This document shows positions 6,313 to 44,773 of a DNA stretch of 64,000 bases, piece by piece. How positions within the stretch are numbered: position 1 is the stretch's first letter; each line of letters begins with the position of its first letter. The notes beneath the pieces were generated by a model. The model saw only the letters and a list, made by a program, of their open reading frames with translations, was not told the DNA's origin and searched no databases. The DNA comes from Eubacteriales bacterium (GTDB lineage Bacteria > Bacillota > Clostridia > Lachnospirales > Lachnospiraceae), in NCBI GenBank assembly GCA_030536995.1, contig JAUNOY010000004.1, positions 1 through 64,000 on the forward strand. Direction: 5' to 3'. The position numbers and the translations under genes are program-made.

Positions 6313-6367
6313 GAATTCTGATATATGAATTTCTCGTACTGGCTTTTCTCAATTTACATGTTTTTTC

Positions 6368-25774: not shown

Positions 25775-26350
25775 ATGCTGGTATTTGCTGCGGTGATTGG
25801 TGAGGTGCCACAGGAAAAAGAAACGAATTTAATAGATGAAACTGTCTTTTATAAAATTGCGGCAGGGGAAAAATATGCATTTTGCGAACTGTATGAAAAA
25901 ACCGGAAATATGATTTTTTCATATGCGCTTTCTTTGCTGAGAAACAGAGAAGATGCAGAGGATGCCATGCAGGAAACTTATTTAAAAATCCGTTCTGCAG
26001 CACATTTGTATCATCCAATGGGAAAGCCTATGGCGTGGATTTTTACCATAGCGAGAAATGTCTGTCTTATGAAGCTCCGGCAGCAGAAGCATTATTTAGG
26101 TGTTTCCATTGAGGAGATAAAAGAAGACTGTGGCTGCAGCCAGATCAAAGACAGAGAGGACAGAATTGTATTGGAGACAGCATTTCAGATTTTATCTAAA
26201 GAAGAGTGTCAGGTAATCGTACTGTATGCAGTATCCGGTATGAAGCATAGGGAAATCAGTGAAATATTAAATCTTCCCATATCGACGGTTCTGTCCAGAT
26301 ATAACCGCGGAATAAAAAAACTGCGAAAAGAGCTGGAGGGGAGATTATGA
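25775..26350 (+). CDS. ECF-type RNA polymerase sigma factor
   Basis: A 191-residue extracytoplasmic-function sigma factor. Region 2 is FCELYEKTGNMIFSYALSLL and NREDAEDAMQETYLKI (about 40-80); region 4 is LSKEECQVIVLYAVSGMKHR and EISEILNLPISTVLSRYNRG (about 140-180). Only regions 2 and 4 are present, as in true ECFs rather than SigI. It is paired, with a four-base overlap, to an RsgI-like anti-sigma factor. ATG 25775 follows GAGGGG. Targets are unknown; the operon context suggests control of the polyphosphate genes in front of it, but no promoter match was verified. Confidence 0.88.
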   Translation: MLVFAAVIGEVPQEKETNLIDETVFYKIAAGEKYAFCELYEKTGNMIFSYALSLLRNREDAEDAMQETYLKIRSAAHLYHPMGKPMAWIFTIARNVCLMKLRQQKHYLGVSIEEIKEDCGCSQIKDREDRIVLETAFQILSKEECQVIVLYAVSGMKHREISEILNLPISTVLSRYNRGIKKLRKELEGRL

Positions 26351-27504
26351 GAAAAATAACAGATTTCGAAATAAAAAAACATATAAAAAACGGAATACAT
26401 GAAATATGTCCGGATAAAGAGGAAGAAATCTGGAGTCAGCCCGTAACCAGGGCGTCAGGAGATGAATGGTTTCTGGATGGGGTGGAAAAGCCGGGACGCC
26501 GTCCGGGGAAAGCCCTGTGGATGCTTCCATCTTTTGCTGCCTGTGCTATGGTATGCTTTTTGTTCCTTCATATATGGAATTTCAGGACGGATGCTACGAT
26601 TTATCTGGATGTAAATCCGAGTATTGAACTTGAAATCAACAGGAAAGAAAAGGTTCTGAGCGCACAGGCAAATAATGAGGACGGAGAAATTGTTCTGGAG
26701 AATATGAACCTTAAAAATACAGAACTGGATGTTGCAGTTAATGCGATTCTGGGTTCTATGGTTAAAAATGGCTACCTCAATGAGGCAAAGAGCATGATTC
26801 TTCTTTCTGTGGATGGGGCGAATCAGGAAAAAACAGACAGAATCCGCGAAAAGCTTTCGAAAGATATGAACAGTTGTCTGACCTCTCTTCTGGGGGCAGG
26901 AGCAGTCTTCCATCAGGACATTAAAGCTGATAAAGAAATGCAACTTCTGGCTGAGGAATATGAAATTTCCCCGGGAAAAGCGGCTCTCCTGCAGAAGATT
27001 ACAATGGATTATCCGAAGCTTTCGTACGATTCTCTTGCCAGAATAACGATGAATCAGCTACCTCTGTATCTGGAAAAACAGGGCGTGGATATCAGGGATT
27101 ATACTTACTACACAGGAACGGAATTTCCGGAAAAAGAGGAAGACGGAGATAAGGACGACCTTCTGGACGATAATGACAGAAAAGAAAAAGAAGATCCAGA
27201 TGAGGACAGAGATGATGAGGAGGAAGAACAGGCAAACACGGAGAAAGAAACAGTTTCTTCAGGAAGTATAAACAAACCGGGAAACGGAGGCTCTTCCGGG
27301 GGGAATGTCAAACCTGAGACAGGAGAAACTGTGGGCGGCCAGGATAAACAGGAACAGGATGAAACGTCTGAAAATATAGAAGATACGTCAGAACAGCAGG
27401 AAGATGCAGGAGAAGAGGAGTTTGATGACGATGCAGAGGCTGATGATTCTGACGATGAGTCTTATGACGGGGAAGATGCAGGCGACGATGAGGCTGATGA
27501 TTAA
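26347..27504 (+). CDS. RsgI-like anti-sigma factor with acidic tail
   Basis: A 385-residue membrane protein, cytosolic at residues 1-56, with one transmembrane helix (57-77) and an extracytoplasmic part beginning TDATIYLDVNPSIELEINRK. In RsgI proteins this VNPS site is reported to be cleaved between Asn and Pro; here that is N90-P91. A helical domain (about 100-245) follows, then a tail (about 255-385) that is extremely rich in Asp/Glu with Gly/Ser inserts. RsgI proteins normally control SigI and end in carbohydrate-binding domains. This one instead partners an ECF sigma and ends in a polyacidic stretch, perhaps a cation or polyphosphate-related sensor (speculative). Confidence 0.8.
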   Translation: MRKITDFEIKKHIKNGIHEICPDKEEEIWSQPVTRASGDEWFLDGVEKPGRRPGKALWMLPSFAACAMVCFLFLHIWNFRTDATIYLDVNPSIELEINRKEKVLSAQANNEDGEIVLENMNLKNTELDVAVNAILGSMVKNGYLNEAKSMILLSVDGANQEKTDRIREKLSKDMNSCLTSLLGAGAVFHQDIKADKEMQLLAEEYEISPGKAALLQKITMDYPKLSYDSLARITMNQLPLYLEKQGVDIRDYTYYTGTEFPEKEEDGDKDDLLDDNDRKEKEDPDEDRDDEEEEQANTEKETVSSGSINKPGNGGSSGGNVKPETGETVGGQDKQEQDETSENIEDTSEQQEDAGEEEFDDDAEADDSDDESYDGEDAGDDEADD

Positions 27505-27830: not shown

Positions 27831-28298
27831 ATGTATTTGTTATATTTTATTCTGTGGGTGATTTTTAATGGCAGAATAACTCTGGAAATCTGCCTGTTTG
27901 GCGTTGTGATTGCAGGCGCTGTTTTTGCCTTTACCTGTAAATTTATGGACTACAGCATAGAAAAAGAAAAGCATATTCTGAAAAAAACGATGCAGATGCT
28001 TCACTATATCTGTGTTCTTGTGATTGAGATTGTAAAGGCAAACTTTGCAGTAATTCACTTGATTCTTTCAGAAAAGGAAGAGATTGAACCTGCGCTGGTA
28101 AGCTTTGACGCAAAGATGAAGACAATTACCGGAAAAGCATTTCTTGCCAATGCAATTACGCTGACACCCGGAACAATCACAGTATCTCTGGAAGATTCCA
28201 GATATCTGGTGCACTGTCTGGATGAAAGTATGGCAGAGGGAATGGATGATTCTGTATTTGTAGATTTACTGGAAAAAATGGAAAGAGAAGAGAAATAA
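27831..28298 (+). CDS. mrpE: Mrp antiporter subunit E (MnhE-like)
   Basis: A 155-residue MnhE/PhaE-like subunit. Two or three N-terminal hydrophobic segments (MYLLYFILWVIFNGRITLEI, then a Gly/Ala-rich helix), a membrane stretch in the middle, and a soluble C-terminal half with LANAITLTPGTITVSLEDSR, the most conserved stretch of the family. E is needed for assembly of Mrp-type Na+(Li+)/H+ antiporters. GGGGGA precedes its ATG. It is the first gene of a ten-gene operon in the order E-F-G-MbhD-MbhE/B-C-D-D'-D''-L. The order EFG first is typical of Mbh/Mbx-type archaeal clusters rather than the Bacillus ABCDEFG order. Confidence 0.88.
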   Translation: MYLLYFILWVIFNGRITLEICLFGVVIAGAVFAFTCKFMDYSIEKEKHILKKTMQMLHYICVLVIEIVKANFAVIHLILSEKEEIEPALVSFDAKMKTITGKAFLANAITLTPGTITVSLEDSRYLVHCLDESMAEGMDDSVFVDLLEKMEREEK

Positions 28299-28315
28299 AA
28301 CAGGAGGGAAATGAA

Positions 28316-28648
28316 ATGGGAAAAGGAATCCCTGGATTGGAGCAGGCATACCACATACTGTTTCTGGCTGCACTTATTTTTCTTGCAGTGATGGTTGTGC
28401 TCTGTCTGATTCGCGCCATAATCGGACCGAAAATTGCGGATCGTATTGTGGCGATCAATATGATGGGAACCATGGTTATGGTTATTCTTGGTATTCTTGC
28501 GCTGATGCTTGAAGAGGGGTACCTGGTAGATATCTGTATCATTTATGCAATGATCAGTTTTCTTGCGGTTATCGTTCTGACAAAGGTATATATGGGCGTT
28601 TACCAGCAGAAAAAAAGGGAGGAGGAGAAAGAGGATGGCAGTGTTTGA
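28316..28648 (+). CDS. mrpF: Mrp antiporter subunit F
   Basis: A 110-residue subunit with three transmembrane helices, MnhF/PhaF family. The characteristic block is CLIRAIIGPKIADRIVAINM followed by MGTMVMVILGILALML, and the third helix is VDICIIYAMISFLAVIVLTK. The conserved Asp of VDICI is intact. It overlaps the next gene by 14 bp. Good AGGAGGG site before its ATG. Confidence 0.88.
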   Translation: MGKGIPGLEQAYHILFLAALIFLAVMVVLCLIRAIIGPKIADRIVAINMMGTMVMVILGILALMLEEGYLVDICIIYAMISFLAVIVLTKVYMGVYQQKKREEEKEDGSV

Positions 28649-29036
28649 ATGGGTGCGTTTCCTTGCAGGGGCAGTGTTTCTGCTTCTGGGGCTGGGAATT
28701 TTTCTGATTGAGATTATCGGTGTGTTCCGTTTTCGGTACGTACTGAACCGTATGCATGCAGCAGCCATGGGAGATACGCTGGGAATAGGTTTTTCTCTTG
28801 TGGGGCTGATTCTCATGAGCGGATGGAATTTCACTTCACTCAAATTGTTGCTTGTGATTGTGTTTTTATGGTTTTCTTCTCCGACCTCTTCACATTTGAT
28901 TGCAAGACTGGAGGTCACAACAAATGAGGATAAGGAAATGAGATACAGGGAGATTTCTCTTCATAATCTGGAGGAGGAACTTCGGGAAAAGAAAACAAAG
29001 GAAATGAAAGAAAAAGAACAAAGGGAGGAAGCTTAA
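28635..29036 (+). CDS. mrpG: Mrp antiporter subunit G
   Basis: A 133-residue MnhG/PhaG subunit with three helices: FLAGAVFLLLGLGIFLIEII, the block RFRYVLNRMHAAAMGDTLGI (family signature RMHAAT...DTLG) and LLLVIVFLWFSSPTSSHLIA with the conserved SPTSSH. The last 35 residues are a charged cytoplasmic helix (Glu/Lys-rich), longer than in Bacillus MrpG. Overlaps F and precedes MbhD by three bases. Confidence 0.88.
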   Translation: MAVFEWVRFLAGAVFLLLGLGIFLIEIIGVFRFRYVLNRMHAAAMGDTLGIGFSLVGLILMSGWNFTSLKLLLVIVFLWFSSPTSSHLIARLEVTTNEDKEMRYREISLHNLEEELREKKTKEMKEKEQREEA

Positions 29037-29039
29037 GTT

Positions 29040-29327
29040 ATGGAGATATTCAGAATTATCCTGTTGGGCTTTTTGCTTGTCTGTGCAATTTCAGTAAGCC
29101 TTTCCAAAAAACTTTTAAATTCCATTTTGATTTATATGTCCTACAGCCTTGTTGTTTCTATTATCTGGGTTCTGTTGGAATCACCGGATCTTGCGATCAC
29201 AGAGGCGGCAGTAGGAGCAGGTATAACCAGTGTACTGTTTTTTGTAACACTGAAGAAAATTCATGCAATTGTAGGAACAGAAAAAAAAGAGGAGGGGGAT
29301 AAAAAAGATGAGCAGAAAGATTCCTGA
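29040..29327 (+). CDS. MbhD-type subunit (DUF4040)
   Basis: A 95-residue DUF4040 subunit equal to the MbhD/MrpA C-terminal domain. It has three helices and the canonical SPDLAITEAAVGAGITS block with the conserved membrane glutamate. In Bacillus Mrp this part is fused inside MrpA; in archaeal Mbh and in this operon it is a separate small gene. Overlaps the next gene by 20 bp. Confidence 0.87.
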   Translation: MEIFRIILLGFLLVCAISVSLSKKLLNSILIYMSYSLVVSIIWVLLESPDLAITEAAVGAGITSVLFFVTLKKIHAIVGTEKKEEGDKKDEQKDS

Positions 29328-30279
29328 AAAAGAATATGAAAAGACCCATTCCTTTAAGTTCAAACAATGGCTGGATGGAACGAAGGATCCTTATCTTGAT
29401 GAAGTAGAAATGAAACCGCAGAAAGAATTCTGTGAAAATAAAGAGGTTTTAAAGAAGAGGGAGGAAGAAGATAAAGAAATTTTTCAGCGTGTTTACGATG
29501 TGGAACACAATGCAAAAATACGGTTTTTTAACAGGGCTTATACAGTATTCAGCGTGCTGTTCTGTATTAGTCTTGTCTTTTTGCTTCTGACAGCAGTGTC
29601 ACATCTCCCGAAGTTTGGACAGGGAAATAATCCTGTCAATAATGAGGTTTCTCAGAGATATATCGAGAAAGGATTACAGGAGACCGGTGCAGTAAATATT
29701 GTGACGGGAATGATTCTTGATTATCGTGCTTTTGATACGCTGGGAGAATCCCATGTACTTTTTATTGCTACCTGTACGGTTCTGATTCTTCTCAGAAGTG
29801 ACAGGAAGAAGGGGAAAAACAGTATAGAAGATATGGAAAATAATGACCGTATCTATGAGCCGAAAAATGATATTATTCTTCAGACGGTTGCAAGGATTCT
29901 TGTACCTCCGATTATAATTTTTGGTATCTATGTAATCCTTGGAGGACATCTGGGACCGGGAGGCGGATTTTCAGGCGGCGCTGTTATAGGAGCGGGACTG
30001 ATTCTTTATCTCAATGCGTTCGGATTTGCAAAAACAGAGCGTTTCTTTACTGCCAAAACTTATAAATGGATGAGCTTTGGCGCGCTTGCGTGTTATGCTC
30101 TGGCGAAAAGCTACTCTTTTTACACCGGAGCAAACCACATTCACAGCATCATTCCGATGGGAACGCCGGGAGCTATTTTGAGCAGCGGTCTGATTCTGGT
30201 TTTGAATATTTGTGTAGGAATTGTAGTGGCAGGAACAATGTATACATTTTATGCCATGTTTCGGAAAGGAGGGTACTGA
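29308..30279 (+). CDS. MbhE-MnhB fusion subunit
   Basis: A 323-residue protein joining two Mrp modules. Residues 1-70 are a charged cytosolic segment absent from ordinary subunits. A helix near 75-97 and the block GLQETGAVNIVTGMILDYRA then FDTLGESHVLF correspond to MbhE (the last part of MrpA). From about residue 190, ILQTVARILVPPIIIFGIYV, GHLGPGGGFSGGAVIGAGLI and the final helices are MnhB/MrpB. The MnhB glycine-rich GPGGGFSGG motif is intact. This fusion differs from both the Bacillus layout (E in MrpA) and the archaeal one (separate genes). Confidence 0.85.
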   Translation: MSRKIPEKEYEKTHSFKFKQWLDGTKDPYLDEVEMKPQKEFCENKEVLKKREEEDKEIFQRVYDVEHNAKIRFFNRAYTVFSVLFCISLVFLLLTAVSHLPKFGQGNNPVNNEVSQRYIEKGLQETGAVNIVTGMILDYRAFDTLGESHVLFIATCTVLILLRSDRKKGKNSIEDMENNDRIYEPKNDIILQTVARILVPPIIIFGIYVILGGHLGPGGGFSGGAVIGAGLILYLNAFGFAKTERFFTAKTYKWMSFGALACYALAKSYSFYTGANHIHSIIPMGTPGAILSSGLILVLNICVGIVVAGTMYTFYAMFRKGGY

Positions 30280-30280
30280 T

Positions 30281-30658
30281 ATGGATTTTTCCAATCTTAT
30301 AACGAATTACGAAGAAGCCGTGGCAGTGATACTTTTTGGAATTGGATTTTCCAATCTTCTGCTGCAGAAGAATCTGATAAAAAAGATTATCGGATTTAAT
30401 ATTATGGATACAGCCATGTATATGTTTCTGGCATTTAAAGGATATATTTCCGGTCGAAAAGCTCCAATTGTAGTGGATGGAATTCAGAGTATGGAGGCGT
30501 ACATAAATCCGATTCCAAGCGGACTTGTCCTTACTGGGATTGTGGTATCTGTCTCTGTCACAGCTCTGATGCTTTCCCTTACTATTCGTCTGTACAGACG
30601 GTATCATACTTTAGATTTGGATGAGATTTCTACCCGTCTTGAGAAGGAGGGCCTGTGA
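30281..30658 (+). CDS. mrpC: Mrp antiporter subunit C (NuoK-like)
   Basis: A 125-residue MnhC/NuoK-like membrane subunit with three helices. It has FGIGFSNLLLQKNLIKKIIG, a middle helix NIMDTAMYMFLAFKGYIS and a conserved NPIPSGLVLTGIVVSVSVTA (NuoK-like P-x-P...LTxIVV). ATG 30281 is preferred (AAGGAGGG) over an upstream in-frame ATG at 30251 that would overlap the preceding gene by 29 bp. The stop is TGA overlapping the next ATG (TGATG). Confidence 0.87.
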   Translation: MDFSNLITNYEEAVAVILFGIGFSNLLLQKNLIKKIIGFNIMDTAMYMFLAFKGYISGRKAPIVVDGIQSMEAYINPIPSGLVLTGIVVSVSVTALMLSLTIRLYRRYHTLDLDEISTRLEKEGL

Positions 30659-32169
30659 TGCAGTTTGTTCAGAATTTTCCGTTTATGAGTATTATCCTGA
30701 CCCTGTTTTCCGGTCCGCTTTCATCTATTCTGAGCGGGAAAAAAGCGAAGTATCTTAATCTTGCAGTGATTTCAATTGTAGGTGTAATGTCTGCAGCAGT
30801 GCTTGCTTTTACGGTTAGTACAGGAGAGCCGTATGTATATATGATGGGGCATTTTCCGGCGCCGTGGGGAAATGAAATCCGCGTAGGCGTGCTGGAAGGG
30901 CTGATGGCTGTTTTCTTCTGTATTATCATGCTTTTGTCCATGCTGGGTGGAATCAAGGAAAGAGAAAGGGAGATTGAGGAATCCAAGCAGAATCTTTATT
31001 ATATTATGGTAAATCTTTTGCTGTCTTCTCTTTTGGCGCTGATTTATACAAATGACCTTTTCACTGCTTATGTGTTTGTGGAAATCAATACAATCTCTGC
31101 CTGCGGACTGATTATGATCCGTCAGAACGGACGTACTTTTGTTGCAGCGACCAGATATATGATTATGAGTCTTCTGGGCTCAGGTATGCTTCTTATGGGA
31201 ATTTGTTTCCTGTATGGACTTACAGGACACCTTCTCATGAGCAATATTCAGGAAGCAGTAGCAGCGTTGAATCAGACAGGGGCATATCATTTGCCGCTGG
31301 TAATTTCGCTGGGTATGATTTCTGTTGGACTTGCCGTGAAAAGCGCGCTGTTTCCGTTTCATGGATGGCTCCCGGATGCATATGGATACTCTACTGTTTC
31401 TTCTGCATCCATTTTATCTTCCCTTGTATCAAAAGGCTATATTTTTCTTTTGATAAAAGTAATGTTCCGCGTGTTTGGATTTGCAGTTGTATGGGACAGT
31501 AAAGTTATCAACGTGCTTTTTGTATTTGGTATTTCGGGAATGATTATTGGTTCGATTGATGCGATTCGCTCCAGAAATATCAGGAGAATGATTGCATATT
31601 CATCGGTAGCGCAGATTGGCTATATTTACATGGGATTCGGACTGGGCAGTATGGAAGGATTTATTGCCAGTATTTTTCATGTTCTGTCCCATGCGGCAAC
31701 GAAATCTCTGCTCTTTGTATCTGCGTCCGGTTTAACGGAAGCCTCCGGAAACAGCGCTGTTTTTGGTGAACTTACAGGTGCAGGATTCAGAAATAAGGTG
31801 GCGGGAGTTGCGTTTACGGTAGGTTCTCTGTCCATGGTAGGTCTTCCTGCATTTTCAGGATTTATTTCCAAGCTTCTTTTTGCACAGGCGGCTGCGGGGC
31901 ACCATGACTGGAAGGTACTTCCGACACTCATTGCTCTTGCTATCAGTACTGTGTTAAATACAGTTTATTTCCTGAAAACAGTGATTCGAATTTATACGCC
32001 TGTACCGAAAGTGGAATGTAAAAAGAAGGACTATGTGACGATTACCATGAGACAACAGCCTGTAAAATTTGCAGCTCTTGTCTGCTTTATCATTATAAAC
32101 CTGATACTTGGTCTGTTCTCACAGCCAATTGTCACACTGATTTCAGACGGTCTGAAAATGTTTGCATAG
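30658..32169 (+). CDS. proton-translocating ND subunit 1 (MrpD-like)
   Basis: A 503-residue NuoN/M/L-family subunit with about 14 helices. The proton-path residues are all present: Glu in TM5 (FTAYVFVEINTIS), Lys in TM7 (GLAVKSALFPFHGWLPDAY), Lys in TM8 (SSLVSKGYIFL), His in the IFHVLSHAATKSLLF helix, and Lys in TM12 (SGFISKLLFA). These positions carry protons in complex I and Mrp. ATG 30658 overlaps the C-subunit stop. It is the first of four ND-type subunits in the operon. Confidence 0.9.
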   Translation: MQFVQNFPFMSIILTLFSGPLSSILSGKKAKYLNLAVISIVGVMSAAVLAFTVSTGEPYVYMMGHFPAPWGNEIRVGVLEGLMAVFFCIIMLLSMLGGIKEREREIEESKQNLYYIMVNLLLSSLLALIYTNDLFTAYVFVEINTISACGLIMIRQNGRTFVAATRYMIMSLLGSGMLLMGICFLYGLTGHLLMSNIQEAVAALNQTGAYHLPLVISLGMISVGLAVKSALFPFHGWLPDAYGYSTVSSASILSSLVSKGYIFLLIKVMFRVFGFAVVWDSKVINVLFVFGISGMIIGSIDAIRSRNIRRMIAYSSVAQIGYIYMGFGLGSMEGFIASIFHVLSHAATKSLLFVSASGLTEASGNSAVFGELTGAGFRNKVAGVAFTVGSLSMVGLPAFSGFISKLLFAQAAAGHHDWKVLPTLIALAISTVLNTVYFLKTVIRIYTPVPKVECKKKDYVTITMRQQPVKFAALVCFIIINLILGLFSQPIVTLISDGLKMFA

Positions 32170-32180
32170 GAGGAATAGAG

Positions 32181-33701
32181 ATGAGTTTGATATTATTGTC
32201 GGTATTTCTCCCGACTGTATCGGGAATACTGCTAGTGGTGTCCTCTTTTTGGGAACATTTAAAGGCGGGGACTGCTACAGAAAAAAGAAAAAAGGGAATC
32301 CTTAAAAGGCTTCATTTATATGTTGGGATTATTCTGATTTTTACCGCACTTCTGGCTCTTGCTGCAGCATGGACGGGAGAGAGGGAGATTACACTTTTTT
32401 ATCTTATGAAGGATATTCCAATATACTTCAAGGTGGATAATCTGGGAAGATTCTTCGTTACTTTTGTAAGTATTGTATGGGTGCTGGCTGGTATTTATTC
32501 GTTTACCTATATGAAGCATGAGAGAGAGGAGAAGAGATTCTTCGGCTGCTATCTGCTGGTTTACGGGATTTTGATTGCACTGGATTTCTCAGGAAATCTG
32601 GTGACATTTTATCTGTTTTATGAGCTTATGACATTGGCATCTGTACCCCTTGTTATGCACAGTGGTATGCGCGAATCTATCATGGCAGGGCTGAAATATC
32701 TGTTTTATTCCATGTGCGGAGCCTATATGGGACTCTTCGGAATCTTCTTTTTATATCGGTATTGTGATACGCTTTCCTTTGTGGAAGGAGGCTCGTTAAA
32801 TGCGGCGCTTGTATCCGGAAATGAGAAGCTTCTTATGATTGCAGTATTTAGTATGCTGATCGGATTTGGAGCAAAAGCAGGCATGTTTCCTCTTCATGCG
32901 TGGCTTCCTACAGCGCATCCGGTTGCGCCATCCCCTGCTTCCGCAGTGTTGTCAGGGGTGATTGTAAAGTCGGGTGTGCTTGCGATGATTCGTGTGGTTT
33001 TCTACGTTGCAGGGGCAGAGTTTGTCAGGGGAACCTGGATACAGACAGCCTGGATGATTCTGTCATTGATTACTGTTTTTATGGGTTCCATGCTTGCATA
33101 TAGGGAGAAGGTATTTAAGAAACGTCTTGCCTATTCTACAGTAAGTCAGGTTTCCTATATTCTGTTTGGGCTTTCTCTGCTGCAGCCGCAGGCTATGACA
33201 GGAGCCCTTTTGCATACAGTATTTCATGCATTTATTAAGTGCGGTCTTTTCCTGACAGCGGGAATTTTTATCTTCTGCTGTGGGAAAAACAGGGTAGAAG
33301 AGTTAAAGGGAATCGGCAGAAAAATGCCGAAAACATTGTGGTGTTTTACTTTCGCATCACTGGCGCTGATCGGAATTCCTCCTGCCAGCGGTTTTGTCAG
33401 CAAGTGGCATCTGGCGCAGGGAGCGCTTGGCGCACCGGTGGGAATCCTGCGCTATATCGGTCCTGCTGTATTGCTTGTGAGCGCGCTTCTCACGGCAGGA
33501 TATCTGCTTCCGATTGTGATGAACGGATTTTTTCCGGGGACAGATTTTGATGAGAAAAAAGCGGGAAATGCAGAGCTTAAAGAAGCTCCTGCAGGAATGC
33601 TGATTCCGCTTATGATACTGGCAGGGTTAAGTCTTCTGCTTGGAATTTTCCCCAGTCCGTTGACAGAGTTTGTCAGCAGGATTGCGGAAACCTTGATGTA
33701 G
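32181..33701 (+). CDS. proton-translocating ND subunit 2
   Basis: A 506-residue ND-type subunit. Motifs: Glu in LVTFYLFYELMTLASVPLVM, Lys in GFGAKAGMFPLHAWLPTAHP, Lys after SGVIVKSGVLAM, HTVFHAFIKCGLFLTAG, and Lys in PPASGFVSKWHLAQ. A charged N-terminal loop precedes the second helix. All antiporter-type residues are kept, so this is likely a working ion channel and not a relic. It is 11 bp after subunit 1. Confidence 0.9.
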   Translation: MSLILLSVFLPTVSGILLVVSSFWEHLKAGTATEKRKKGILKRLHLYVGIILIFTALLALAAAWTGEREITLFYLMKDIPIYFKVDNLGRFFVTFVSIVWVLAGIYSFTYMKHEREEKRFFGCYLLVYGILIALDFSGNLVTFYLFYELMTLASVPLVMHSGMRESIMAGLKYLFYSMCGAYMGLFGIFFLYRYCDTLSFVEGGSLNAALVSGNEKLLMIAVFSMLIGFGAKAGMFPLHAWLPTAHPVAPSPASAVLSGVIVKSGVLAMIRVVFYVAGAEFVRGTWIQTAWMILSLITVFMGSMLAYREKVFKKRLAYSTVSQVSYILFGLSLLQPQAMTGALLHTVFHAFIKCGLFLTAGIFIFCCGKNRVEELKGIGRKMPKTLWCFTFASLALIGIPPASGFVSKWHLAQGALGAPVGILRYIGPAVLLVSALLTAGYLLPIVMNGFFPGTDFDEKKAGNAELKEAPAGMLIPLMILAGLSLLLGIFPSPLTEFVSRIAETLM

Positions 33702-33717
33702 AAAGGGGGAGAAAAAA

Positions 33718-35193
33718 TTGAATTCAGTGATTATGCCGATCGTGATTTTGCTCCCGATTTTCTGCGGAGCGCTTGTGCCGGTTCTTCCTTTTAAGAGCCG
33801 CAGACAGATGGAATTTTATATTGAAACTGCAGTGATTCTCAATTCGGTTCTTGTTGTTTGCATGCTGTTTCATCGCCCGGATGAGGTGTTTACAATGTTC
33901 CGCCTTACCGGAAATTTAAGTATCAGTTTTCGTCTGGATGACCTTGGAACAGTGTTTGCTGCTATTGTTTCACTGCTCTGGCCGCTGGCATCTCTGTATG
34001 CCTTTGAATATATGCAGCACGAAGGACATGAAAAGGTTTTCTTTATGTTTTATACCATGACATATGGAATTACTCTTGGAATTGCACTTTCCGACGATAT
34101 TTTGACCATGTATTGTTTTTATGAGATGCTGACTCTGATTACACTGCCTTTGATTATGCATACTCTTTCGAGAAATGCGATACTGGCAAGCCGTACCTAT
34201 CTTTATTATTCTCTGGGCGGCGCAGCCTTTGCTTTTATCGGGATGATTTTTATTCTGATTTACGGAGACAATTCTCAGTTTATTCCGGGAGGAGTGCTTA
34301 ACCTTGTCAAAATCGGAAACAAAGGAAATACCCTTCTTCTGGTTTACGTGCTTTGTTTTATGGGATTCAGTGTGAAGACTGCTATGTGGCCGTTCGGGGC
34401 ATGGCTTCCCAAGGCAGGCGTTGCACCTACTCCGGTAACAGCTCTGCTTCATGCGGTTGCAGTTGTTAAAGCAGGCGCTTTTGCGGTAATCCGTGTTACA
34501 TACTATAGTTTTGGAACAGAGTTTCTCAAAGGAACCTGGGCGCAGAATGTATTGATGGTATTTGTGATTTTTACTATTGTATATGGGTGCAGCCGTGCCT
34601 TGAAGGAAACTCATTTCAAACGAAGGCTTGCATATTCTACCATGAGTAACCTGTCTTATATTTTGTTCGGCGTAGTTTTGATGTCGCCGGCAGGTCTTGT
34701 GGGAGCGCTGAGTCATATGATTTTTCATGCGGTAATGAAAATCAGTTCTTTCTTCTGTGCAGGTGCGGTAATCTGTAAAACAGAAAAGAATTATATACAT
34801 GAGCTGGATGGACTTGGAAGAAAAATGCCAGTTGTATTCACTGTGTTTACCATTTCCGGATTGGCGTTAATGGGAGTGCCGGGACTGCCCGGATTTATCA
34901 GCAAATGGAATCTTGCAAAAGCAGCAGTTCTGGATGGAGGAACTCTGGCGGTAATCGGAATGGGAGCTCTTCTTGTATCGGCTCTTTTGACTGCGATTTA
35001 TATGATGACGATTTCTGTGCGCGCCTTTTTCCCCGGCAAAAATTTTAATTATCAGAAGCTGGAGGGAGTGAAGGAACCGGGGATTCAAATGCTTTTTCCG
35101 CTGCTTGTTTTCGTGGCGGCAATGTTTGTGTTTGGGCTTCATTCCCAGCCGGTGATTTCAGCACTCACGGATTTGGCAGCTTTTGTGAAGTAG
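33718..35193 (+). CDS. proton-translocating ND subunit 3
   Basis: A 491-residue ND-type subunit starting at TTG (33718, after GGGGGAG). It keeps the TM5 Glu (ILTMYCFYEMLTLITLPL), the TM7 Lys (FSVKTAMWPFGAWLPKAG; note FG where the others have LH, so the TM7 histidine is missing), the TM8 Lys (VVKAGAFA) and the TM12 Lys (LPGFISKWNLAK). The loss of the TM7 His makes it the most divergent of the four. Transcription is continuous, with 16-bp spacing on either side. Confidence 0.9.
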   Translation: MNSVIMPIVILLPIFCGALVPVLPFKSRRQMEFYIETAVILNSVLVVCMLFHRPDEVFTMFRLTGNLSISFRLDDLGTVFAAIVSLLWPLASLYAFEYMQHEGHEKVFFMFYTMTYGITLGIALSDDILTMYCFYEMLTLITLPLIMHTLSRNAILASRTYLYYSLGGAAFAFIGMIFILIYGDNSQFIPGGVLNLVKIGNKGNTLLLVYVLCFMGFSVKTAMWPFGAWLPKAGVAPTPVTALLHAVAVVKAGAFAVIRVTYYSFGTEFLKGTWAQNVLMVFVIFTIVYGCSRALKETHFKRRLAYSTMSNLSYILFGVVLMSPAGLVGALSHMIFHAVMKISSFFCAGAVICKTEKNYIHELDGLGRKMPVVFTVFTISGLALMGVPGLPGFISKWNLAKAAVLDGGTLAVIGMGALLVSALLTAIYMMTISVRAFFPGKNFNYQKLEGVKEPGIQMLFPLLVFVAAMFVFGLHSQPVISALTDLAAFVK

Positions 35194-35208
35194 AAGGGAG
35201 GAGAGAAA

Positions 35209-37290
35209 ATGGAATTTTTAATAGGTATGCTTGTATTTTTTCCCTTCCTAGGCGGTCTTGTCTGCAGTGTGACGGGGAAAAGAAACGAAAAAGTCAGGGA
35301 CTGTCTGGCTGCGGCCGTGACAGTTCTGGAACTTGCTCTGATTCTGGCGGCTTTTGTCTGCAACAGAGAGGCAATCTGGCAGCAAAGTGATATCTGGAAC
35401 AGTGCGGTGGCTTCGCTTTGTCTGAAAGATATCTGTGGCATGGGGCTGAATTTTCAGCTTGACGGCTTCCGCCTGATATACGGAATAGTAGCTGCTTTTA
35501 TGTGGACTATGGCATGTCTGATGGCAAAGGAATATCTGAAACATCACGAGAACAGAAACCGTTTTTATCTGTTTCTTTTACTGACTCTCGGGGCGACAAT
35601 GGGAGTTTTCCTGTCCGCAGATTTGTTTACAACATTTATTTTCTTTGAAATTATGTCCTTTACTTCTTATGTGTGGGTGGTACAGGAAGAAAATCAGCCG
35701 TCCATACGAGCTGCAGGAACATATCTTGCAGTGGCAGTGATTGGTGGCCTTGTAATGCTCATGGGTATTTTTATGCTGTACCATGAGCTTGGGACGGTGG
35801 TTATCGACCAACTCCATGAAGCTGTACAGCACTGTGAAAATAAAGCTGTGATTTATGCATCCGGTGCCTGTATGCTGGTGGGATTCGGTGCAAAAGCAGG
35901 TGCCTTTCCTCTTCATATCTGGCTTCCGAAGGCGCATCCTGTTGCGCCGGCTCCGGCGTCTGCTTTGCTGTCCGGTATCCTGACAAAGACAGGAATATAT
36001 GGAATGCTTCTTCTTTCGGCAAACCTCTTTTTCCACGATGTAGTATGGGGGGCGCTCATTTTAGCTCTTGGAGTGGCAACTATGCTGGGCGGCGCGCTGC
36101 TGGCAGTCTTTTCCATTGATTTAAAGAGAACGCTTGCCTGTTCCTCTATGTCCCAGATTGGATTTATTATGGTTGGTATCGGCATGCAGGGGCTTCTTGG
36201 AGAGGAGAATGCTCTGGCTGTTCACGGAACTTTGCTTCATATGATGAACCATTCTATGATTAAGCTTGTTTTATTCCTTGCGGCAGGCGTGGTGTTCATG
36301 AATACCCATGCCCTTGATTTGAATGAAATCCGTGGATTTGGAAGAAAGAAACCATTTTTGAAAGGGGTTTTTCTTATTGGTGCGCTGGCAATCGGCGGAA
36401 TTCCTTTCTTCGGAGGTTATGTGAGTAAAACCTTGCTTCACGAGAGCATTGTGGAGTTTGGCGGAGGATGGATCATGAAGGCAGTGGAATACAGTTTTCT
36501 GTTTTCCGGAGGTTTGACCGTCGCATACATGACGAAGCTTTTTATTGCTGTATTTATAGAATCCAATACATCTGCAAAAGTGCAGAAAAAATATGACAGT
36601 CAGAAAAAATACATCAATTCTCAGTCTGCCTTTGTTCTTGCGGTCAGTGCAGGAGTGCTCCTTATCTGGGGACTTTTCCCGGAAAATCTGATGGATAAGG
36701 CTGCGCAATTTGGCCAGGGAATTATGCGTCTTGGACACTTTGGGGAAAGAGTAGCGTATTTTGAACTTAAGAATCTTTCCGGAGCCGCAATTTCTATAGG
36801 AATCGGAGCGGTTGTTTATCTGTTCTTTATCAGGAAAGTTCTTATGGAAAAAACTGCCGGAGGAGACAGATATGTGAATCGCTGGTTCTCATGGTTGGAT
36901 GTGGAAAATCTTATCTACAGACCGTTGTTATTGAAACTTCTTCCTCTTTTGGGCGGTCTGGTATGCAGAGTGCTCGACAGCTTTCTGGACGGGGTCATTG
37001 TATTCCTCAGGAAGAGTATTTACCGTGACAGCCCTCTTCCCCATGAGCTTACAGAGGGGACTTTATTTACACTGAGTGTTGGCGTTGTTCTTAATCGTTT
37101 CCGGGATGTAGCAAACAGTACCTGGAGACGCAAAAGACCGATTGAGAGAGATTACGTTCATTATCTTGCTGTCCGTCATGCGGAGAGCAGGCAGAACAGT
37201 GTGGTTATTCGAAGGAGTATGTCTTTTGCGTTGCTTCTTACCTGCATCGGACTGATGCTGACGCTGTTCTATCTGATTATATTGTGGTAA
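35209..37290 (+). CDS. ND subunit 4, NuoL/MrpA-like, long
   Basis: A 693-residue subunit, the longest in the operon. The core (1-490) has the Glu (FTTFIFFEIMSFTSYVWVVQ), Lys (GFGAKAGAFPLHIWLPKAHP), TM8 Lys (GILTKTGIYGM), HMMNHSMIKLVLFLAAG and TM12 Lys (FFGGYVSKTLLHES). After that it adds about 200 residues: two further helices, a soluble stretch, and a last helix. This is shorter than MrpA (about 800) because the MbhD/E parts are separate genes. NuoL-like subunits use an amphipathic arm; a similar element may be in the extension. It is the last gene of the operon. Confidence 0.9.
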   Translation: MEFLIGMLVFFPFLGGLVCSVTGKRNEKVRDCLAAAVTVLELALILAAFVCNREAIWQQSDIWNSAVASLCLKDICGMGLNFQLDGFRLIYGIVAAFMWTMACLMAKEYLKHHENRNRFYLFLLLTLGATMGVFLSADLFTTFIFFEIMSFTSYVWVVQEENQPSIRAAGTYLAVAVIGGLVMLMGIFMLYHELGTVVIDQLHEAVQHCENKAVIYASGACMLVGFGAKAGAFPLHIWLPKAHPVAPAPASALLSGILTKTGIYGMLLLSANLFFHDVVWGALILALGVATMLGGALLAVFSIDLKRTLACSSMSQIGFIMVGIGMQGLLGEENALAVHGTLLHMMNHSMIKLVLFLAAGVVFMNTHALDLNEIRGFGRKKPFLKGVFLIGALAIGGIPFFGGYVSKTLLHESIVEFGGGWIMKAVEYSFLFSGGLTVAYMTKLFIAVFIESNTSAKVQKKYDSQKKYINSQSAFVLAVSAGVLLIWGLFPENLMDKAAQFGQGIMRLGHFGERVAYFELKNLSGAAISIGIGAVVYLFFIRKVLMEKTAGGDRYVNRWFSWLDVENLIYRPLLLKLLPLLGGLVCRVLDSFLDGVIVFLRKSIYRDSPLPHELTEGTLFTLSVGVVLNRFRDVANSTWRRKRPIERDYVHYLAVRHAESRQNSVVIRRSMSFALLLTCIGLMLTLFYLIILW

Positions 37291-37600: not shown

Positions 37601-37638
37601 AGCTGATATTTGCATGCGGCAGATATCAGCTTTTTTTT
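37601..37638 (+). terminator. aroF attenuator terminator
   Basis: AGCTGATAT (37601-37609) / ATATCAGCT (37623-37631), followed by eight T to 37638. It lies between the leader peptide and aroF. Confidence 0.88.
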
Positions 37639-41272: not shown

Positions 41273-42436
41273 ATGCGATTAAAAAAGAAGAATGTCTTCC
41301 CTGGAGGAGTCCATCCCACTGACGGGCAGGATAAGGCTCTGACCATGAACAAGCCCGTTCGTGTCTATTTGCCGGATCAGGGAAAGATTTCCGATGAGCC
41401 GGCGTTTGGAAGCGCTGTTTATGAAAAGCAACTGGTGTCTGTGGATGAATTTTCCAGAGAAGACATCATCCGCGGAATGGAAGAAGGCGGTCTTGTGGGA
41501 ATGGGCGGAGCAGGATTCCCCACTCACATTAAATACAAGACAGATTTGCCTATCGAAGCAGTCCTGGTCAACGGCGCAGAATGTGAACCTTTCCTGACCT
41601 GTGACTACAGGTTAATGCTGGAGTGTCCGGCAGGAATCCTCAATGGCGTACGTTTGATGAAAAAAGCGGCAAGGGCAGAGAAAGCCTATATTTGCATTGA
41701 GGATAACAAGCCGGAAGCAGTGAAATCTTTAAATGCAGTTTTGGAAAGCTGCAGGGAAGAGGGAATTGAAGTAAAAGTTCTTCCCACAAAATACCCACAG
41801 GGCGGTGAGCGCCAGCTTATCCAGGCAGTACTTGGAAGAGAAGTTCCGGCAGGAAGTTTTCCTGCTGCAGTAGGAGCAATGGTTTCCAATATAGGAACTG
41901 CTAAAGCAACTGCAGATATGGTTCTGGGCAAAAAGCCTCTTAACAGTCGTGTAGTAACGGTAACCGGCTGTGTAAAGGAACCGGGAAATTTCCTGGTACC
42001 TGTGGGAACTACTGCAAAAGAGCTTATTGAACTCTGTGGGGGAGTTACAGAGAAACATCACAGAATTATCGGCGGCGGTCCTATGACCGGTCCGTGTATT
42101 ACTTACGACTGGGATGGTCGGGAAGAGCTGTTTTGTATTGGAAAGAATACCTCAGGAATCCTTGTGCTTCCTGATTATCAGACAGAAGAAAGCCCATGTA
42201 TGCGATGCGGCGGCTGTGAGCAGGTATGTCCTGCAGGACTGATTCCTTACCAGATTGATTTCGCATATCAGGAAGAGGATTTTGATTTATGTGAGAGCCT
42301 GCATGCAAGCGAATGTATTGCCTGCGGCTGCTGTTCTTATACCTGCCCTGCAAAGAGGGAGCTGAGTCTCCGTACCAGACTGGCGCGTGACACAGTAAAG
42401 CAGAGAATGAGAGAAAGGGCGGAAAAGAAAGCATGA
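41273..42436 (+). CDS. rnfC: RnfC-like Fe-S/FMN subunit
   Basis: A 387-residue RnfC/NqrF-type subunit. N-terminal GGVHPTDGQDKALT, the nucleotide/FMN region GGLVGMGGAGFPTHIKY and VNGAECEPFLTCDYRLMLE, and two [4Fe-4S] clusters: CMRCGGCEQVCP and CIACGCCSYTCP (about residues 305 and 345). RnfC is the NAD(H)-contacting peripheral arm of Rnf complexes. It is somewhat shorter than the usual 440 residues because the C-terminal extension is missing. Good AAAGGAG. It overlaps rnfD by four bases (ATGA). Confidence 0.9.
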   Translation: MRLKKKNVFPGGVHPTDGQDKALTMNKPVRVYLPDQGKISDEPAFGSAVYEKQLVSVDEFSREDIIRGMEEGGLVGMGGAGFPTHIKYKTDLPIEAVLVNGAECEPFLTCDYRLMLECPAGILNGVRLMKKAARAEKAYICIEDNKPEAVKSLNAVLESCREEGIEVKVLPTKYPQGGERQLIQAVLGREVPAGSFPAAVGAMVSNIGTAKATADMVLGKKPLNSRVVTVTGCVKEPGNFLVPVGTTAKELIELCGGVTEKHHRIIGGGPMTGPCITYDWDGREELFCIGKNTSGILVLPDYQTEESPCMRCGGCEQVCPAGLIPYQIDFAYQEEDFDLCESLHASECIACGCCSYTCPAKRELSLRTRLARDTVKQRMRERAEKKA

Positions 42437-43377
42437 GTGAGAGAAGAATTATAAACGGACCTCATCTTCGGACAGAGAGAACTACCAGATGGGTGATGCT
42501 GCAGGTGACGATTTCCCTGATTCCTGCACTTCTGGGTGCGATTTATTTTTTTGGAATCCGTGCGTTTTACGTGACAGGGTTTTCTGTGGCAGTCTGTGTA
42601 CTTACAGAATATCTCTGGCAGAAGCTCACAAAAAAACAGGTTACAGCAGGAGATTTCAGTGCAGTGGTAACAGGAATCCTTCTGGCATTTAATATGCCTG
42701 TGACAGCTCCTCTGTGGGTTGTATCGGCAGCAGGAGTATTCAGTATTCTTTTTGTGAAGCAGATGTTTGGCGGAATAGGAAGTAATTTTGTCAATCCCGC
42801 GCTGATGGGAAGACTTCTGGTGATGGTTGCATGGCCGGGAGCCGTGATGCAGTATGTAGCTCCGAGAACGTTGGCAGCAGATGCTGTCTCATCAGCAACA
42901 GTACTTGGAACAGTGAAAAACGGAGGAGAAGCAGCCTACGATTATCTGCAGATGTTTATCGGTGAAATGCCGGGAGCTCTGGGAGAGACAAGTACTCTTC
43001 TTCTCTTAGTCGGATTTGCCTATATGTGTTATATGGGAGTTGTCAACTGGGAAGCATCTGTTACCTATATTGTGACAGTTCTTGCCCTTACCTTTGTATT
43101 TGGACCGGAAGGCCTTTTTACGGGAGATATTCTTGTGAATCTTTTTGGCGGCGGTCTTGTTCTGGGCGGATGCTATATGCTTACAGACTATGTGTTTGTT
43201 TCCCGAAAGGGTAAGCTTCTCTACGCAGTGACAGCCGGAATCATTACAGCGGCGATTCGTATTTACAGCAATTATCCGGAAGGAATCTGTTTCGGTATCC
43301 TGACGGCAAACTGCATGGCAGGATTAGTATCCATGCTTTATAAAAAACATGTATATGGAATGAAAAAACAGGCATAA
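42433..43377 (+). CDS. rnfD: RnfD-like membrane flavoprotein
   Basis: A 314-residue RnfD/NqrB-like subunit with about ten helices. The N-terminal HLRTERTTRWVMLQV and FGGIGSNFVNPALMGR are family blocks, and the FMN attachment site lies at residues 153-156, SSAT (T156), in the D-x-x-SSAT context of RnfD (usually SGAT). The enzyme moves electrons through its covalent FMN across the membrane, coupled to Na+ or H+. The SSAT variant is a modest deviation. Following gene rnfG begins 18 bp later. Confidence 0.9.
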   Translation: MSERRIINGPHLRTERTTRWVMLQVTISLIPALLGAIYFFGIRAFYVTGFSVAVCVLTEYLWQKLTKKQVTAGDFSAVVTGILLAFNMPVTAPLWVVSAAGVFSILFVKQMFGGIGSNFVNPALMGRLLVMVAWPGAVMQYVAPRTLAADAVSSATVLGTVKNGGEAAYDYLQMFIGEMPGALGETSTLLLLVGFAYMCYMGVVNWEASVTYIVTVLALTFVFGPEGLFTGDILVNLFGGGLVLGGCYMLTDYVFVSRKGKLLYAVTAGIITAAIRIYSNYPEGICFGILTANCMAGLVSMLYKKHVYGMKKQA

Positions 43378-43395
43378 ATTTGGAGGCATTTAACT

Positions 43396-44754
43396 ATGAA
43401 AAATAAAAATGTAAGAGGTATCCTTGCGCTTGCAGTTGTGACTGCATTATCTTTTGGAGTAATCTACGGTTCACATACATTTTCTGAAAAATTTGCGGCA
43501 GAAAATACTCAGACAGCACAGGAAGGCCAGTCAGAGGTTCTGGAGGAACTGGATACGGAAGGGTTCGACGGAATCGAAAAAGCAGTGAAAACATCAGACG
43601 GCTATCTTGTAACTGTCCGCACAAAAGGCTATGGCGGAGATATTGTAATGGATGTGGCTTTTGATGCAGAAGGCAAAACTGTGACAAAAGTAACAGTAAA
43701 GGAGCAGACTGAGACAGAAGGTGTCGGATCCAAAATCACAGAGACGGAGTTTTTAAGCCAGTTTGAAGGAGTAGAGGCACCGGTTTACCTTCCGGGAATG
43801 AACGTTCCGATGACACTGGAAGAAACTGGAGAGGAAACTCCGGCAGCTGATCAGGAGGAAGACCTTCTCAAAGATGCGGTCCTTGCAGACGGAGATTATA
43901 TTGCAAAGGGCCAGCCGGATGATAACGGTCTTACAGATCAGGTAACCATGACAGTGAAGGATGGAAAAATCACTGCTGTTAACTGGGATTCAGTAGGAGA
44001 GGACGGAACAAAGAAAAGCGTAATGTCTGAAAACGGAGAATACGTTATGACAGAGGACGGTCCGACCTGGAAGGAGCAGGCAGAGGCTCTTGCCCAGACA
44101 CTTGTGGAAAATCAGACGCTGGATGTATTTACTATGGATGAGCAGGGAAAAACTGACGCGGTATCCGGAGTCAGCATTTCCATTGGAGGCTTCGTAGATC
44201 TTGCAAAACAGTGTATGTATGAAGCGGCAGGAATTGTGACAGAGAAATCTCTGACTCTTGCAGACGGAGATTATATTGCAAAGGGCCAGCCGGACGATAA
44301 CGGTCTTACAGAGCAGGTGACCATGACAGTGAAAGACGGAAAAATCACTGCTGTTAACTGGGATGCGATAGGAGAGGATGGAACAAAGAAAAGTGTAATG
44401 TCTGAAAACGGAGAGTACGTTATGACAGAGGACGGTCCGACCTGGAAGGAGCAGGCAGAGGCTCTTGCCCAGACACTTGTGGAAAATCAGACATTGGATG
44501 TATTTACTATGGATGAGCAGGGAAAAACCGATGCGGTATCCGGAGTCAGCATCTCCATTGGCGGTTTTGTAAGCCTTGCACAGGATTGCCTTAATCAGGC
44601 AGCAGGAGTCGAAACACCGGAAGAGACACCGGCAGAGACAGAAGCACCTGAAGACGGTACGGTTGTTGACGGTGTATCCGGAGCAACAATTTCTTCTACT
44701 GCAGCTGTAAATGCAGTTAATATGGCATTTGATTTCTTAAATGCAGCGAAATAA
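43396..44754 (+). CDS. rnfG: RnfG-like flavoprotein with internal tandem repeats
   Basis: A 452-residue protein. One signal-anchor helix (about 6-26) is followed by the first half of an RnfG FMN_bind domain (about 53-135, DGYLVTVRTKGYGGDIVMDV). Next come two nearly identical 125-residue repeats (163-287 and 288-412), each starting LADGDYIAKGQPDDNGLT and having VSGVSISIGGFV near the end. The C-terminus GVSGATISSTAAVNAVN (S428-T431) is the canonical covalent FMN site of RnfG. The repeats are themselves FMN_bind-like, with SGVS (Ser260, Ser385) where the flavin Thr would be. So a normal 190-residue RnfG appears split by a duplicated insertion. ApbE, which attaches FMN, lies 3.4 kb away. Confidence 0.85.
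   Translation: MKNKNVRGILALAVVTALSFGVIYGSHTFSEKFAAENTQTAQEGQSEVLEELDTEGFDGIEKAVKTSDGYLVTVRTKGYGGDIVMDVAFDAEGKTVTKVTVKEQTETEGVGSKITETEFLSQFEGVEAPVYLPGMNVPMTLEETGEETPAADQEEDLLKDAVLADGDYIAKGQPDDNGLTDQVTMTVKDGKITAVNWDSVGEDGTKKSVMSENGEYVMTEDGPTWKEQAEALAQTLVENQTLDVFTMDEQGKTDAVSGVSISIGGFVDLAKQCMYEAAGIVTEKSLTLADGDYIAKGQPDDNGLTEQVTMTVKDGKITAVNWDAIGEDGTKKSVMSENGEYVMTEDGPTWKEQAEALAQTLVENQTLDVFTMDEQGKTDAVSGVSISIGGFVSLAQDCLNQAAGVETPEETPAETEAPEDGTVVDGVSGATISSTAAVNAVNMAFDFLNAAK
43882..44631 (+). repeat. 375-bp tandem direct repeat within rnfG-like gene
   Basis: Unit 1 (43882-44256) and unit 2 (44257 to about 44620) are offset by exactly 375 bases (125 codons) and differ at only scattered positions, mostly synonymous. 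The near identity at the DNA level points to a recent duplication or gene conversion. Confidence 0.85.
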
Positions 44755-44773
44755 GGAAAACGGAGGAAAAGAT

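What the first reader, a model, noticed from the sequence alone, without database searches (positions are those of the whole stretch)
27831..37290. Mrp/Mbh-type antiporter operon with four ND-like subunits and no redox module
Ten tightly linked genes in the order E, F, G, MbhD, MbhE-MnhB fusion, C, then four NuoL/M/N-like subunits of 503, 506, 491 and 693 residues. Known Mrp complexes have two such subunits (A and D) and complex I has three. All four keep the TM5 Glu, TM7 Lys, TM8 Lys and TM12 Lys of the proton path (one loses the TM7 His), so none looks like a relic. No hydrogenase, formate or Fd-oxidising peripheral genes are present. A four-channel complex could move more ions per turn, or two pairs could be alternatives. 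I do not know of a described complex with this subunit set.
Basis: partly seen in the sequence, partly recalled or inferred. Interest (0 to 1): 0.85.

Follow-up and report, generated by a model that had tools for sequence, protein, structure and literature searches.

The report
Four-channel sodium/proton exchanger operon
A Blautia-like bacterium carries a ten-gene operon for a redox-free membrane complex with four proton-path subunits, one more than the commonest relatives because the middle subunit was duplicated, and it is predicted to swap several protons for each sodium ion; relatives with one to five such subunits would show whether subunit number sets that ratio.

Summary
In detail: ten tightly packed genes (E, F, G, MbhD, MbhE-MnhB, C, then four NuoL/M/N-like subunits N1-N4) with no redox genes in the operon. 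The own genome has exactly these four PF00361 proteins and no PF00346 (NuoD-type) protein. N1 is the proximal (MrpD-side) type; N4 is the distal MrpA/NuoL type with a lateral helix. N2 and N3 are sister clades (100/100) from one old duplication of the middle subunit of three-subunit relatives. Both evolve under purifying selection. The pair recurs in 30 of 30 close loci, the four in 17 of 37 same-genus genomes. It is not a new kind of system: mrpA-less "group 3" Mrp operons with several mrpD copies are in print, as are complex I variants with four and five such subunits. New, as far as nine paper searches show: the conserved four-subunit redox-free version; the series of 1-5 subunits on one small-subunit module; and Rnf genes directly upstream of 2-3-subunit relatives in 13 of 60 phylum loci. 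Inferred mechanism: electrogenic H+/Na+ exchange with a high H+:Na+ ratio. The lateral helix does not lengthen with subunit number, which counts against one rigid four-unit arm.

The parts
27831..28298 (+). MrpE/MnhE-type subunit (155 aa)
   Evidence: PF01899 E 1e-29
28316..28648 (+). MrpF-type subunit (110 aa); Asn48 at the place of MrpF Asp38
   Evidence: PF04066; alignment to 7qru_F; Asn in 26 of 26 relatives of this type
28635..29036 (+). MrpG-type subunit (133 aa)
   Evidence: PF03334
29040..29327 (+). MbhD-type subunit (95 aa); Glu55 = Na+-site Glu69 of MBH MbhD
   Evidence: PF13244, alignment to 6cfw_D; Glu in 23 of 23 rows
29308..30279 (+). MbhE-MnhB fusion (323 aa); Asp143 and Glu147 probably = MrpA Asp776 and Glu780; Phe221 = MrpB Phe41
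   Evidence: PF20501 + PF04039, matched ranges to 7qru_A/B, 24 of 24 rows keep the three residues
30251..30658 (+). MrpC/NuoK-type subunit (135 aa)
   Evidence: PF00420
30655..32169 (+). N1: first antiporter-like subunit, MrpD/proximal type
   Evidence: PF00361; first-position clade
32181..33701 (+). N2: middle-type subunit, copy 1
   Evidence: PF00361/PF00662; N2 clade 100/98
33718..35193 (+). N3: middle-type subunit, copy 2, TM7 His lost
   Evidence: PF00361/PF00662; N3 clade 100/99
35209..37290 (+). N4: distal MrpA-N/NuoL-type subunit with C-terminal lateral helix (residues 565-604 in the model)
   Evidence: PF00361; AF2 model pLDDT 84.6, matches MrpA and NuoL
37601..37631 (+). terminator-like hairpin with a T7 tail, about 310 bp past N4, before the next gene (336 aa, DAHP synthase by recall); may end the operon or belong to that gene's leader
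   Evidence: consensus scan, 13 found against 9.7 expected

Best explanation
The ten genes encode the parts of a stand-alone, redox-free Mrp-type complex whose middle antiporter-like subunit was duplicated long ago, giving four, and the complex is predicted to exchange several protons for each sodium ion across the membrane. Shown by sequence: one complete small-subunit (sodium) module E-F-G-MbhD-MbhE/MnhB-C, then N1 (proximal MrpD type), N2 and N3 (duplicated middle type) and N4 (distal MrpA/NuoL type with lateral helix), with the proton-path Glu and Lys residues and most sodium-site residues kept. Inferred: the subunits stack in gene order, sodium module - C - N1 - N2 - N3 - N4; each of the four carries protons and all push one sodium path, so the H+:Na+ ratio is higher than the 2 modelled for two-subunit Mrp. 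Such a high ratio would let a weak proton gradient (fermentation acids leaving the cell) expel Na+ and feed a sodium gradient probably also made by Rnf and probably used by the ATP synthase, whose c subunit resembles sodium-type c rings. Direction and ratio are untested.
For: Gene content and order. Only four PF00361 proteins and no PF00346 in the own genome. Order kept in relatives, also in L152 of another family of the class, at 49, 49, 45 and 39% identity for N1-N4. Three position families and one N2/N3 duplication, 100/100. Proton-path residues kept. Sodium-site residues MbhD Glu55, MbhE Asp143/Glu147, MnhB Phe221 kept. N4 model matches NuoL and MrpA into the lateral helix. dN/dS at most 0.16 in every gene comparison where dS could be estimated (four loci). 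No flanking gene family in more than 3 of 33 loci and no NuoB/CD/H in 30 loci, so self-contained. Own F-type c subunit: second and third PDB hits of 36 are 1yce (named sodium ion specific) and 3zk1 (Na+-type by recall), with GIGEG and ETTGIY motifs. RnfA/E-type domains elsewhere in the genome. A one-MrpD stand-alone group 3 Mrp uses Na+ in vivo (PMC8415708 passages).
Against: No activity, complex or expression data. The distance from TM12 Lys to the C-terminus does not grow with subunit number (286 in the window; 214 E. coli NuoL; 205-380 in three-subunit operons, cut locus L108 left out; 283 in the five-subunit one), and the modelled lateral helix has only 40 residues, too short to tie all four together (inference). 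MrpF Asp38, a proposed Na+ entry residue, is Asn here, though Asn is usual in the phylum sample. N3 has changed gate residues (TM7 His lost, Asn at the NuoM His322 place), so it may not carry protons the same way. In P. furiosus the proposed direction is the opposite, Na+ in and H+ out.
Confidence: 0.55

Rival explanations
1. N2 and N3 are alternative middle subunits: the cell builds three-subunit complexes with either N2 or N3, for two conditions or two ions, as the changed residues of N3 would allow.
For: They are a duplicate pair; N3 has its own conserved gate residues (His at the NuoL His254 place 14 of 14, Asn at the NuoM His322 place 14 of 14, TM7 His lost in 13 of 14). L136 has N1-N2-N4 only. 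The lateral helix is not longer than in three-subunit relatives.
Against: N2 and N3 lie together in 30 of 30 close loci, between N1 and N4 wherever those are in the stretch, with one set of small subunits; complex I variants with an extra middle-type subunit are read as one longer arm (PMC9040806).
Confidence: 0.2
2. The complex runs the other way: it uses a Na+ gradient (from Rnf) to expel protons during acid stress, as proposed for the stand-alone Mrp of P. furiosus.
For: P. furiosus deletion strain is more sensitive to acidification; authors propose Na+ in, H+ out. Own genome has RnfA/E-type domains, and in 13 of 60 phylum loci Rnf genes lie directly upstream of a related complex.
Against: With four protons per Na+ this needs a sodium-motive force four times the proton-motive force (own calculation); it fits a low ratio better.
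Confidence: 0.2
3. It docks onto an unlinked redox enzyme (for example Rnf or a soluble ferredoxin oxidoreductase) and is a redox-driven pump after all.
For: RnfA/E-type domains elsewhere in the genome; Rnf-Mrp neighbours in relatives; a partial RnfC/D/FMN-binding set 4 kb downstream; a NuoF-type 662-aa protein near the operon in L022 and one of 665 aa in L136.
Against: No NuoB/CD/H-type docking subunit in the operon or in 30 close loci, no PF00346 in the own genome; no flanking family in more than 3 of 33 loci.
Confidence: 0.08

Closest known systems
Stand-alone group 3 Mrp (P. furiosus mrpEFGBB'CD; PMC8415708)
   Same: E-F-G-B-B'-C gene order, no fused mrpA, no redox module; multiple mrpD copies allowed in the group's description.
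   Different: One MrpD there; four antiporter-like subunits here, including a distal MrpA/NuoL-type one with lateral helix.
Three-subunit Mrp-type operons without redox genes (Peptoclostridium acidaminophilum plasmid L142, Natronorubrum bangense plasmid L144; three ND genes in 29 of 52 complete runs of the phylum sample)
   Same: Same head E-F-G-MbhD-MbhE-MnhB-C in L142; its first, middle and last ND proteins fall with N1, N2/N3 and N4 types.
   Different: One middle subunit, not two; MbhE and MnhB are separate genes in L142.
[quoted passage not shown] Manganitrophaceae Complex_I_3; PMC9040806)
   Same: Extra antiporter-like subunits; S. meliloti D1 falls in the same middle family as N2/N3.
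   Different: Those have redox modules and, in two of the three, a ~26-residue lateral-helix insert; here neither.
Classical Mrp (Bacillus pseudofirmus, 7qru)
   Same: All small subunits and a MrpA-N/MrpD-type pair; the same sodium-site residues looked at apart from MrpF Asp38.
   Different: MrpA is one fused protein there; two antiporter-like subunits, not four.
MBH and MBS of Pyrococcus (6cfw, 6u8y)
   Same: MbhD, an MbhE-MnhB fusion as in MBS, ion-path residues.
   Different: No hydrogenase-like module here; MBH has one and MBS two antiporter-like subunits (table in PMC8415708).

Membership tests
Mrp antiporter, group 3 (stand-alone) | MrpE, F, G, B and C subunits encoded together | tested here: met
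   Pfam hits over cut-offs
Mrp antiporter, group 3 (stand-alone) | no fused mrpA; only mrpD-type genes, sometimes several (definition in PMC8415708) | tested here: met
   MbhD and MbhE lie outside the four PF00361 proteins; N4 is MrpA-N-like in fold but not fused to MbhD/E
Mrp antiporter, group 3 (stand-alone) | no redox module linked | tested here: met
Mrp antiporter, group 3 (stand-alone) | sodium-path residues | tested here: inconclusive
   MbhD Glu55, MbhE Asp143/Glu147, MnhB Phe221 kept; MrpF Asp38 place is Asn
Mrp antiporter, group 3 (stand-alone) | Na+/H+ antiport activity | not testable with these tools
   needs vesicle assay or E. coli KNabc complementation
Respiratory complex I | NuoB/C/D/H redox and quinone subunits | tested here: not met
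   none in the operon or in 30 loci; no PF00346 in own genome, control rings in 11 of 14
MBH/MBS/energy-converting hydrogenase | hydrogenase-like large and small subunits in the operon | tested here: not met
Extended-arm (2M-type) complex I | extra middle-type antiporter subunit | tested here: met
   N2/N3 duplication
Extended-arm (2M-type) complex I | lengthened lateral helix on the distal subunit | tested here: not met
   no relation of C-terminal length to subunit number; 40-residue helix

The most novel reading that the evidence does not exclude
Redox-free Mrp complexes form a natural gearbox: whole antiporter-like subunits are added or lost on one fixed sodium module (one to five), each adding a proton per sodium ion, and the Lachnospiraceae four-subunit version is a high-gear exchanger that turns a weak proton gradient into the sodium gradient its Rnf and ATP synthase run on.
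Probability: 0.3. Interest if true: 0.8.

Novelty: new variant of a known kind. Interest (0 to 1): 0.55.

Why it matters
Whether each antiporter-like subunit of complex I and Mrp moves one proton is a long-standing question, hard to test in complex I because the subunit number is nearly fixed and redox chemistry is tied in. A redox-free series with one to five such subunits on the same sodium module would let the H+:Na+ ratio be measured against subunit number directly. It also points to an unexamined part of energy metabolism in Lachnospiraceae, and the Rnf genes directly upstream of relatives suggest a working pair.

Tried and rejected
Relic or pseudogene: rejected; dN/dS 0.06-0.11 for N1-N4 against L033, and in the nearer relatives N3 is better conserved than N2 (81 against 73% in L033; in some distant ones, such as L021 and L025, it is the other way round). 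dS is near or past saturation and could not be estimated in many comparisons, so ratios are rough.

Two alternative MrpA/MrpD pairs: rejected by the trees; only N2/N3 are duplicates.

Lateral helix scaling with subunit number: predicted from PMC9040806, not met (alignment, output cut).

N3-N4 docking: AF2 of a chain running through the N3 stop into N4 gave pLDDT 83 but pTM 0.56.

Rnf dependence by co-occurrence: uninformative, Rnf-Nqr is in 56 of 61 relatives.

Shared neighbours: 231 flanking ORFs of 33 loci gave no family in more than 3 loci.

Promoters: 21 sites against 20.9 expected, not used. Rfam at gathering score: nothing in or near the operon.

Chadwick et al. 2018 on 2M complex I is recalled; the DOI I recalled led to an unrelated paper and a second try is not held, so I rely on PMC9040806 passages.
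Full report
Observation. The window holds ten genes on the + strand from 27831 to 37290, with gaps of at most 17 bp or overlaps of at most 29 bp. Pfam names them MNHE, MrpF_PhaF, PhaG_MnhG_YufB, MbhD, MbhE+MnhB, Oxidored_q2 and four Proton_antipo_M proteins. NCBIfam's listed models for the four are Mrp subunit A- or D-, complex I- or hydrogenase-type, none reaching its curated cut-off (best 25 of 71-74 shown). The own genome (2.83 Mb, 40 contigs, 92.5% complete) has four PF00361 matches, all here, and no PF00346 (the control rings in 11 of 14 genomes). The host looks like a Blautia-type Lachnospiraceae: N3 is 98% identical to a protein named Blautia sp. and the nearest locus, L033, is named Blautia.

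Conservation. A scan of genome contigs with N2 gave 30 loci. All 30 hold N2 and N3 next to each other (N3 short at the end of L024, split into two frames in L027). N1 is in 29 and N4 in 27, whole or in part. 17 of 30 hold all ten genes in the window's order (L027 with its split N3 among them); the rest hold a part, mostly where the stretch ends, which I did not check one by one. Of 61 relatives, 31 have PF00361. Of the 37 that the tool labels same genus (own included), 19 have it; 17 of those have exactly four, on one contig about 1.5 kb apart, and the other two have 2 matches and 5 (split over two contigs, one a fragment). A class-wide look with N3 at E<=1e-120 found 5 of 245 genomes including the own. 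Three of these were fetched: L152, of another family in the class, has all ten genes in order with N1-N4 at 49, 49, 45 and 39% identity; L153, same family, has all ten too; L151 is cut in N1. No flanking gene family occurs in more than 3 of 33 loci. So the unit is the ten genes.

What the four subunits are. I built a tree of 121 ND subunits, with E. coli NuoL/M/N, HyfB/D/F, HycC, classical MrpA/D, the S. meliloti complex I variant and three-subunit operons among them (quick tree, several long branches). N1 lies with first-position subunits, in the group that holds MrpD and NuoN (99). N4 lies with last-position subunits, on the side of the tree that holds MrpA, NuoL and HyfB (100), but NuoM is on that side too. 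N2 and N3 are both 'middle' subunits. A careful tree of 60 rows puts N2+N3 in one clade (100/100, 36 rows), split into N2 (100/98, 19 rows) and N3 (100/99, 17 rows), with the Peptoclostridium middle subunit and L095_n2 nearest outside (100/99). One old duplication explains this. L136 has N1-N2-N4 without N3; L035 has five, from two extra first-type copies plus N2 and N4. L095, L115 and L122 reach four by another route, with a second middle family.

Residues. TM5 Glu, TM7 Lys, TM8 Lys and TM12 Lys are in all four. In clade samples of 16, 18, 14 and 16 sequences (N1-N4) they are invariant except TM8 Lys in N3 (Lys 11, Asn 3 of 14). N3 has lost the TM7 His in 13 of 14, has His at the NuoL His254 place in 14 of 14 and Asn at the NuoM His322 place in 14 of 14. 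N3 is thus a specialised copy, not a decayed one. dN/dS against L033 is 0.057, 0.076, 0.069 and 0.108 for N1-N4 (dS about 2, so rough).

Sodium module. By alignment to solved structures, MbhD Glu55 matches MBH Glu69 (position counted), the proposed Na+ site (PMC7419157 passages). MnhB Phe221 matches MrpB Phe41, from the equal-length ranges. MbhE Asp143 and Glu147 match MrpA Asp776 and Glu780 if the two-residue gap in the 7qru_A match lies before them; that alignment was not printed. Roles are from PMC9568556 passages. Glu55 is kept in 23 of 23 rows and the other three in 24 of 24. MrpF Asp38 is Asn48 here and in all 26 relatives of this type; in the other groups Asn also dominates (12 of 13, 33 of 48, 8 of 10), so this may be a group feature.

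Wider series. From 299 genomes of the phylum, 109 have MbhD. I picked by eye 64 matches in which MbhD is not part of a MrpA-like protein, leaving some 28 others of that kind, and fetched 60 of the 64. Of 52 ND runs there with room behind them, 29 have three ND genes, 12 one, 8 two and 3 four; with the order-level loci and two plasmids it is 31, 21, 8, 6, and 1 with five, of 67. The 'one' class is inflated: six of the 12 are rearranged or broken loci in which the run stops early (L082, L084, L101, L123, L133, L139). L112 and L117 carry redox genes. In 13 of the 60 loci RnfC, D, E, A and B homologues lie upstream on the same strand, with RnfB within -30 to 637 bp of E on stop-to-stop frames (RnfG was not searched). 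Pfam confirms one of them, L085, gene by gene, RnfG-type included. None of these 13 is of the four-subunit N2/N3 type.

Cell context. The own genome has two Rnf-Nqr (RnfA/E-type) matches in one 436-residue frame on contig 14 (the rest of that operon was not looked at) and two c-type ATPase subunits. The F-type one has its best PDB hits to 4bem, 1yce (named sodium ion specific) and 3zk1, with GIGEG as in 3zk1 and ETTGIY where that has ESTGIY. That 3zk1 and 4bem come from Na+-coupled enzymes is recalled. Coupling of Rnf, Mrp and an ATP synthase that uses Na+ and H+ is proposed for Methanosarcina (PMC7399021 passages).

Mechanism. Best reading: one ten-subunit complex with a single Na+ path and four proton paths, exchanging H+ against Na+ with a ratio above the 2 modelled for two-subunit Mrp (PMC9568556 passages, which also says the ratio is unknown). 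With n protons per Na+, H+-driven Na+ export works while n times the proton-motive force exceeds the sodium-motive force (own reasoning), which suits a cell with a weak proton gradient. The ratio, the direction and the linear arm are inferred.

Known or new. [quoted passage not shown] furiosus (PMC8415708 passages); cyanobacterial group 3 operons with two mrpD are listed in PMC5703873. The window fits this definition, so it is a new variant, not a new kind. Nine searches of the open library showed me no description of a redox-free four-subunit operon or of Rnf genes joined to Mrp-type operons. I saw listings for most papers and passages of nine (PMC6349859, PMC5703873, PMC9040806, PMC9568556, PMC7419157, PMC7399021, PMC8415708, PMC8269263, PMC8542988); subscription papers such as Swartz 2005 and Chadwick 2018 (both recalled) were not read.

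Noticed in passing
L080, L081, L083, L085, L086, L087, L089, L090, L092, L093, L097, L100, L127: RnfC, D, E, A and B homologues lie directly upstream of a 2- or 3-subunit Mrp-type operon in 13 of 60 fetched phylum loci, suggesting a functional Rnf-Mrp pair.
   Followed up: partly
window 41273-45541: A partial Rnf-like set: RnfC-like protein without a match to the RnfC_N domain, RnfD-like, a protein with four FMN_bind stretches, and a 266-aa protein with no Pfam match; no RnfA/E/B among the neighbours scanned.
   Followed up: no
window 25775-27504: Sigma-70-family (region 2 and 4, ECF-like) factor followed by an RsgI-like anti-sigma factor, about 330 bp upstream of the operon.
   Followed up: no
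   Followed up: partly
L028/L032 and L029/L030: Two loci with this operon on separate contigs of one assembly each (CAJTIU and CANOKL records); true second copies or assembly duplicates not told apart.
   Followed up: no
   Followed up: no
window 6224-6316: Glycine riboswitch (RF00504, 47.9 bits) upstream of a 463-aa ORF at 6427.
   Followed up: no
L149, L150 (own genome): The genome encodes two rotary-ATPase c/K subunits, one in an F-type and one in a V/A-type gene context as I read the neighbouring ORFs.
   Followed up: partly
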